Part shown: piece by piece, positions 35,964 through 36,875 of the stretch | Layout of the letters: every line of letters starts with the position of its first letter | Numbering within the stretch: the first letter of the stretch is position 1 | DNA from: Halovivax gelatinilyticus | GTDB lineage: Archaea > Halobacteriota > Halobacteria > Halobacteriales > Natrialbaceae | NCBI RefSeq assembly: GCF_024300625.1 | Contig: NZ_CP101322.1 | Coordinates: forward strand, 137,992 to 201,991 | Direction: 5' to 3' | Length of the DNA: 64,000 nt | Made by a program: the position numbers and the translations under genes | Notes under the pieces: generated by a model | The model's input: the letters and a program-made list of their open reading frames with translations, nothing else | Told to the model about the DNA's origin: nothing | The model's database searches: none

Positions 35964-36028
35964 CGACGGCGTCGATCGACCGGAGTCGGCAGACGAGCGT
36001 GACCGAACGCGTTCAAATCGTCACAAGT

Positions 36029-36286
36029 CTACCCGCGTCGAATCGTCTCTACGTGTGCCCTTGATACGGGGCCGAGTTCGTCGAACGCGATTCGATTCCT
36101 TCGTCCGGACGCGTCTTCGATCATGGATTATAGGTCGTCGATGATGCGTTGAGGGTCGTCTTCCGGTTCGACGATTACTCGCCCATCCGCCTCGTGTATC
36201 TCGACTTCGCTCCCCGGCGTGAGTCCGAGTTGTTCTCGAACTCGTTTCGGTAGAACGATTCGCCCCTTCGCATCGACGGCGACCAT
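36029..36286 (-). pseudogene. AbrB/VapB-type antitoxin broken by an in-frame stop
   Basis: From the ATG at 36286 the frame reads MVAVDAKGRIVLPKRVREQL, a swapped-hairpin AbrB domain, and continues to PEDDPQRIIDDL, then a TAA at 36128-36130. In the same frame it goes on for 32 more codons (SMIEDASGRRNRIAFDELGP, ending HVETIRRG) to a TAG at 36029. Read through, the product is 85 residues, the usual length of haloarchaeal VapB-like antitoxins, and the second part looks like their toxin-binding tail. One GAA or CAA to TAA change would explain it. No PIN-domain toxin follows. Confidence 0.7.
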
Positions 36287-36287
36287 A

Positions 36288-36304
36288 TCCCACAATTGGT
36301 GGGA
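36288..36304 (-). promoter_or_regulatory. Inverted repeat before the AbrB start
   Basis: TCCCAC-AATTG-GTGGGA is a perfect 6-bp inverted repeat ending one base before the ATG at 36286. AbrB/VapB antitoxins normally autoregulate by binding such palindromes. Its intactness beside a truncated reading frame suggests that the break is recent or that the 52-residue DNA-binding part is still in use. Confidence 0.5.
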
Positions 36305-36428: not shown

Positions 36429-36794
36429 CTACTCGAGCAATCCGAGGTCCTTCGCGTGGCGTTCGAGTCGCGTATTGTTCCGGTAGTCCGATTCGGACAG
36501 TTCCGTCTTTACCACCGTGTACGTGTTCTCGGTGTTGTCGTAGCTGACGTACCCGAAGTTGAGTAATTCCCGACGGACGAGCACGTGATCGTCGAAATCT
36601 ACCGATAGGACGTCGTTCACGGCCGACTTCTCGTAGGTCTCACCGACGTCGAACCGATCGATGACGCGCGCTAACACGATCTGTTTCAGCGCGTCGTTTC
36701 TCGGCAGGCGACCGCGTTCGAGACACGCTGCGGCGTATTCGTCGGCGTCCCGATCGTACTGGAGGTCCATGTCACACCCAGCGGCGGCCAGCAT
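36429..36794 (-). CDS. DUF2087-like winged helix protein
   Basis: A 121-residue protein from the ATG at 36794 (MLAAAGCDMDLQYDRDADEY); another start at 36770 and a TTG at 36815 are possible. The core GRLPRNDALKQIVLARVIDRF and DVGETYEKSAVNDVL and LVRRELLNFGYVSYD match DUF2087, a winged-helix-like domain often joined to ArsR/MarR regulators in bacteria. Here it stands alone. A DNA-binding role is plausible but not shown. Confidence 0.7.
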   Translation of the reverse strand: MLAAAGCDMDLQYDRDADEYAAACLERGRLPRNDALKQIVLARVIDRFDVGETYEKSAVNDVLSVDFDDHVLVRRELLNFGYVSYDNTENTYTVVKTELSESDYRNNTRLERHAKDLGLLE

Positions 36795-36875
36795 TTCACT
36801 CTTATGATACGTCAATTGCGAACCGTATCGATCTCACGCGTTGCATACGACCACCCAGTGTCGGCGGCCACAACG

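What the first reader, a model, noticed from the sequence alone, without database searches (positions are those of the whole stretch)
36029..36286. VapB-like antitoxin cut by a single nonsense codon, with the toxin gone
The frame reads an AbrB domain, hits TAA at 36128-36130, and continues in the same frame with a tail that fits the C-terminus of haloarchaeal VapB proteins, ending at 85 codons. The inverted repeat before the start is intact. No PIN-domain toxin follows within the next 60 bases or in the next gene. This is a fresh relic of a toxin-antitoxin module, or a solo DNA-binding remnant kept as a regulator.
Basis: partly seen in the sequence, partly recalled or inferred. Interest (0 to 1): 0.55.

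Follow-up and report, generated by a model that had tools for sequence, protein, structure and literature searches.

The report
Broken haloarchaeal antitoxin without its toxin
This is the worn-down remnant of an ordinary haloarchaeal toxin-antitoxin gene pair: the antitoxin gene has a stop codon in the middle, its last few codons and the toxin gene beside it are missing, and only the DNA-binding half and its operator remain intact, so it is a common kind of genomic relic.

Summary
On the minus strand, ATG 36286 opens a 52-residue AbrB/MazE domain (PF04014, E 3.9e-14). It is cut by TAA 36128-36130, and the same frame continues 32 codons to TAG 36029-36031. A profile of the tails of 75 toxin-bearing relatives, this gene left out, finds those 32 codons at E 1.5e-8; the next best of 1399 open segments scores 0.57. 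Relatives occur in 97 of 391 class genomes. At 75 of 101 hits an intact VapC-like PIN gene follows. The window genome has no copy of that toxin.

The lesion is larger than one stop. All 75 toxin-bearing relatives run at least 6 codons past the point where this one ends, and 61 of 75 start the toxin 8 bases before the antitoxin stop. The promoter core scores below all 82 relatives with the operator. The operator itself is perfect and is its only exact copy in the genome.

Best reading: a decaying vapBC locus, the toxin end deleted. Retention as a regulator is possible but has no positive support. Such solo relics are common; interest is low.

The parts
36128..36286 (-). Truncated antitoxin reading frame: ATG 36286, AbrB/MazE swapped-hairpin DNA-binding domain, 52 residues, TAA at 36128-36130
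   Evidence: PF04014 E 3.9e-14 on the open frame; family domain profile, own sequence left out, E 2.5e-28
36128..36130 (-). In-frame TAA where all 75 toxin-bearing relatives have a sense codon, 68 of 75 an acidic residue
36029..36127 (-). Former toxin-binding tail of the antitoxin, 32 codons, then TAG 36029-36031; lacks the last 6 or more codons that all 75 toxin-bearing relatives have. An in-frame ATG (36124) lies 3 bases after the TAA
   Evidence: tail profile E 1.5e-8, best of 1399 open segments
36288..36304 (.). Operator, perfect inverted repeat TCCCAC-N5-GTGGGA ending one base before the ATG
   Evidence: perfect in 74 of 75 toxin-bearing relatives; only exact copy in the genome
36305..36325 (-). 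Place where relatives have the archaeal BRE/TATA promoter core; here a poor match
   Evidence: best score 1.8 against a minimum of 1.95 and median of 10.3 in 82 relatives; 7.4% of random window places reach 1.8
35964..36028 (.). 65-base gap where vapC would lie; no trace of vapC; ends at the stop of a convergent thioredoxin-like gene

Best explanation
This is a degenerate AbrB-type vapBC toxin-antitoxin locus. In the intact family the antitoxin binds the TCCCAC-N5-GTGGGA palindrome, which lies between the TATA box and the start codon, and so represses its own operon; the C-terminal tail holds the PIN ribonuclease VapC (the operator and gene layout are shown here; repression and toxin binding are inferred from known AbrB/PIN systems). 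In this genome a deletion took the end of vapB and all of vapC. With no toxin left to neutralise, the tail and the promoter were free to decay; the stop codon cut the tail off the domain. What is left could at most make a 52-residue AbrB dimer that binds its own operator. The order of the events is inferred, not shown.
For: AbrB domain over the curated cut-off. Tail homology at E 1.5e-8. Full-length relatives in 97 of 391 class genomes, with an intact PIN-like toxin behind 75 of 101 hits, typically overlapping by 8 bases. The relatives' downstream gene is PIN-like: TIGR00028 E 2.9e-4, profile-profile match to this genome's own PIN proteins E 2e-5, probability 77%. No such toxin in the window's genome. 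The family operator is perfect here. C-terminal codons missing, promoter core weakest of 83. Parallel decay elsewhere: of 26 hits without intact VapC by my rule, two are frameshifted (L065, L089), four keep clear toxin fragments (L051, L122, L125, L127), L127 also has an internal TGA in vapB, and 16 have no trace. The tree puts this gene with another truncated, toxin-less copy (L129, support 100/86) beside toxin-bearing relatives, that outer grouping at 96/76.
Against: No orthologue of the locus at the same place was found, so the deletion is inferred from the family, not seen against an intact strain: flanking genes have no syntenic match in the 5 genus genomes (own included) or in the fetched relatives' loci. 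Base composition by codon position is ordinary in domain and tail, and the tail's conservation is low but within the family's range; neither shows decay. The operator is intact, unlike in most toxin-less relatives.
Confidence: 0.85

Rival explanations
1. Solo regulator: the 52-residue AbrB domain is still made and used as a stand-alone DNA-binding protein, bound at its own operator and perhaps elsewhere, the tail being no longer needed.
For: Domain intact and operator perfect although the toxin is gone; among 26 hits without an intact toxin by my rule only 8 keep the operator with at most one mismatch. Another toxin-less copy, G144 (L122), keeps domain and perfect operator with the tail replaced. 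Solo antitoxins as regulators are proposed in PMC2701414 (passages read).
Against: Only one exact operator in the genome; one-mismatch operators no more frequent than in congeners without the gene (10 against 10, 5 and 8). Promoter core the weakest of 83. No conserved orthologue in the genus.
Confidence: 0.1
2. Sequencing or assembly error: the stop is false and the gene encodes an intact 85-codon solo antitoxin.
For: Single-codon difference; read data not available; genome completeness is 95.5% against 99% in the four congeners.
Against: None of the 12 AbrB and 16 PIN hits in this genome shows an internal stop in those family searches. Even without the stop the C-terminal end and vapC are missing.
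Confidence: 0.07
3. Split antitoxin by re-initiation: translation stops at TAA and restarts at the ATG 3 bases on, giving a DNA-binding peptide and a separate 31-residue toxin-binding peptide that protects against incoming vapC.
For: ATG 36124 follows the TAA after 3 bases and its 31-codon frame is open. Kin are carried on plasmids, so a toxin could arrive. Anti-addiction by orphan antitoxins is discussed in PMC7354431 (passages read).
Against: The nearest relative by tree (L129) and G143 have Met at that codon without any stop, so the ATG is not a special adaptation. No toxin in the genome. The tail lacks its last codons.
Confidence: 0.02

Closest known systems
Haloarchaeal AbrB-type VapB of the family found here, e.g. 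Haladaptatus halobius plasmid protein WP_227379569.1 (57.6% identity)
   Same: AbrB domain and tail over 97% of the query
   Different: The relative is intact and has a 153-residue toxin gene overlapping by 8 bases; here a stop, a shortened end and no toxin
G277 second copy (L129)
   Same: Nearest by tree, tail cut, no VapC
   Different: Cut by loss of the tail rather than by the same stop; operator absent and no ATG beside the domain
Orphan or solo antitoxins in bacteria (PMC7192599 and PMC2701414, passages read)
   Same: Antitoxin left without a toxin; PMC2701414 states that over 50% of genes in the largest families are solo
   Different: Here the antitoxin itself is broken as well

Membership tests
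AbrB/MazE DNA-binding domain (PF04014) | Profile match over the gathering score | tested here: met
   52.8 bits against 24.7
Haloarchaeal AbrB-type VapB family of this report | Conserved tail after the AbrB domain | tested here: met
   Tail profile E 1.5e-8 for the 32 codons after the stop
Haloarchaeal AbrB-type VapB family of this report | Uninterrupted frame to the family's C-terminal end | tested here: not met
   TAA inside; 6 or more C-terminal codons missing
Haloarchaeal AbrB-type VapB family of this report | Operator TCCCAC-N5-GTGGGA directly before the start | tested here: met
   Perfect
Functional VapBC toxin-antitoxin system | Adjacent PIN-domain toxin | tested here: not met
   No VapC match in the window or in the genome
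Functional VapBC toxin-antitoxin system | Neutralisation of the toxin and autorepression | not testable with these tools
   Needs experiment

The most novel reading that the evidence does not exclude
A 52-residue AbrB mini-protein, perhaps with a separately re-initiated tail peptide, is still expressed and kept as a stand-alone self-binding repressor or as protection against plasmid-borne vapC of the same family.
Probability: 0.06. Interest if true: 0.45.

Novelty: new member of a known kind. Interest (0 to 1): 0.18.

Why it matters
Little on its own: it is one more decayed toxin-antitoxin locus. As a by-product the comparison defines a widespread haloarchaeal AbrB/PIN family. Its operator is nearly invariant while the toxin is present (74 of 75 perfect) and mostly lost when the toxin is gone (at most one mismatch in 8 of 26). 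Its toxin scores below Pfam's PIN cut-off in the members looked at one by one, so it is easily missed.

Tried and rejected
Tried: a hidden vapC fragment downstream (none in any frame with stops read through); vapC elsewhere in the genome (none at E 0.001); synteny through the flanking genes (no match in the genus or in the fetched loci; the DUF2087 neighbour occurs in 7 of 391 genomes, and its loci there were not compared further); closer relatives in genome contigs (none), phages (none), viral contigs (six weak AbrB-domain matches only) and plasmids (best 57.6%); codon-position composition as a sign of decay (ordinary); a regulon of the operator (no excess); solved structures of the toxin (no match by single sequence at E 1 or by profile at E 0.01). 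No structure prediction was made.

Caveats on counts: the 391 class genomes are a sample drawn from a larger group. All 101 matches of that call were fetched and examined. Three were left out of the antitoxin alignment because my motif rule missed them and six out of the start-anchored operator list. 'Intact VapC' is my rule (start, LFDV-like motif, over 130 residues); L091 fails it on the start but matches the profile at full length, so 76 of 101 would be fair. L139 ends 198 bases past the gene at a contig edge and cannot be judged. The tree has few columns and many weak forks.

Full report
What is there. The gene lies on the minus strand. ATG 36286 opens a frame of 52 codons that ends at TAA 36128-36130; the same frame runs on for 32 codons to TAG 36029-36031. 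The first part is an AbrB/MazE swapped-hairpin domain (PF04014 E 3.9e-14; TIGR01439). Directly before the ATG, at 36304-36288, stands a perfect inverted repeat with 6-base arms and a 5-base centre. Downstream, 65 bases lead to the stop of a convergent thioredoxin-like gene; upstream on the same strand is a DUF2087 gene (the thioredoxin label rests on a sub-threshold Pfam match).

Is the tail real? I built a profile of the tails of the 75 relatives that carry a toxin, without this gene, and searched the 1399 open segments of 20 or more residues in the window. The stretch after the stop came first at E 1.5e-8; the next had 0.57. The domain profile gave 2.5e-28. So the part after the stop is a former VapB tail, not chance.

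The family. A search with the read-through protein found relatives in 97 of 391 sampled class genomes, 101 matches in all; only two contain an internal stop, this one (TAA) and G220 (TGA). I examined all 101 matches. In 75 an intact gene of about 155 residues follows, in 61 of these starting 8 bases before the antitoxin stop. That gene is a weak PIN-domain protein: 15.6 and 19.6 bits against Pfam's 23.6 for two members, 4 of 22 aligned members at E 0.01 or better, TIGR00028 E 2.9e-4, also below its cut-off, and a profile-profile match to this genome's own PIN proteins at E 2e-5, probability 77%. I call it VapC on that basis; no solved structure matched.

What is missing here. The VapC profile finds nothing in the window, E up to 10, stops read through, and a congener's VapC finds nothing in the window's genome at E 0.001. 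All 75 toxin-bearing relatives continue at least 6 codons past this gene's last column, so the loss reaches into the end of the antitoxin, where in relatives the two genes overlap. At the stop column all 75 have a sense codon, 68 an acidic residue.

Operator and promoter. The palindrome TCCCAC-N5-GTGGGA is perfect in 74 of 75 toxin-bearing relatives and has one mismatch in the other; among the 26 matches without an intact toxin by my rule, 5 are perfect (this one included) and 3 have one mismatch. In the genus the exact pattern occurs once each in the only two genomes with the gene and in none of the other three. With one mismatch allowed this genome has 10 places against 10, 5, 8 and 8 in its congeners, so I see no regulon. 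The BRE/TATA core that lies upstream of the operator in relatives scores 1.8 here, below all 82 relatives compared (minimum 1.95, median 10.3); 7.4% of random window places reach 1.8.

Age of the damage. Tail conservation is low but within the family's range: 7 of 95 relatives score lower in the tail and 13 of 95 in the domain; the residual of tail on domain is z -1.24. Codon-position composition is ordinary. This fits recent damage and cannot date it. The tree joins this gene with a second copy in G277 (L129; support 100/86), which is also truncated and without a toxin, beside the toxin-bearing G173, G177 and G373, that outer grouping at 96/76. L129 itself has no ATG beside the domain and no operator, so it looks like another relic.

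Decay is common in the family. Of the 26 matches that fail my rule for an intact toxin, one (L091) matches the VapC profile at full length, two are frameshifted (L065, L089), four keep clear fragments (L051, L122, L125, L127), three have only weak traces (L084, L088, L111), and 16 have none, this gene included; one of the 16 (L139) is at a contig edge. Some of the 16 are distant relatives that may never have belonged to the pair: L138, for example, is followed by a frame that reads like a different PIN protein (not tested).

Explanation. The best reading is a vapBC locus that lost its toxin and the end of its antitoxin by deletion, after which the tail took a stop and the promoter weakened. 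The operator and gene layout are shown by comparison; repression and toxin binding rest on established knowledge of AbrB/PIN systems; the order of events is inference.

Literature. Solo antitoxins are well known: over 50% of genes in the largest families (PMC2701414, passages read), 2253 orphan antitoxins in a Klebsiella study (PMC7192599, passages read), and their possible anti-addiction role (PMC7354431, passages read). My searches for haloarchaeal VapBC papers (listings only) showed no title on this family; I did not open the haloarchaeal papers listed, so I make no claim that it is unpublished.

Noticed in passing
L068:3533-3997 and the VapC set: The toxin of this haloarchaeal family scores below Pfam's PIN cut-off in the two members scanned one by one and is annotated 'hypothetical protein' on two Haladaptatus plasmids, so these pairs are easily missed.
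   Followed up: partly
L122 (G144:C1:1840788-1840952): Relative in which an internal deletion appears to join the AbrB domain to the last residues of VapC, with a perfect operator kept.
   Followed up: partly
L127 (G220:C20:52023-52274): Another broken relative: TGA early in the antitoxin and a shortened toxin behind it.
   Followed up: partly
36429-36815, minus strand: DUF2087 gene found in only 7 of 391 class genomes and in none of the four congeners; possibly acquired, like its antitoxin neighbour.
   Followed up: partly
G000 as a whole: Single-contig genome with 95.5% completeness where its four congeners have 99%; cause not examined.
   Followed up: no
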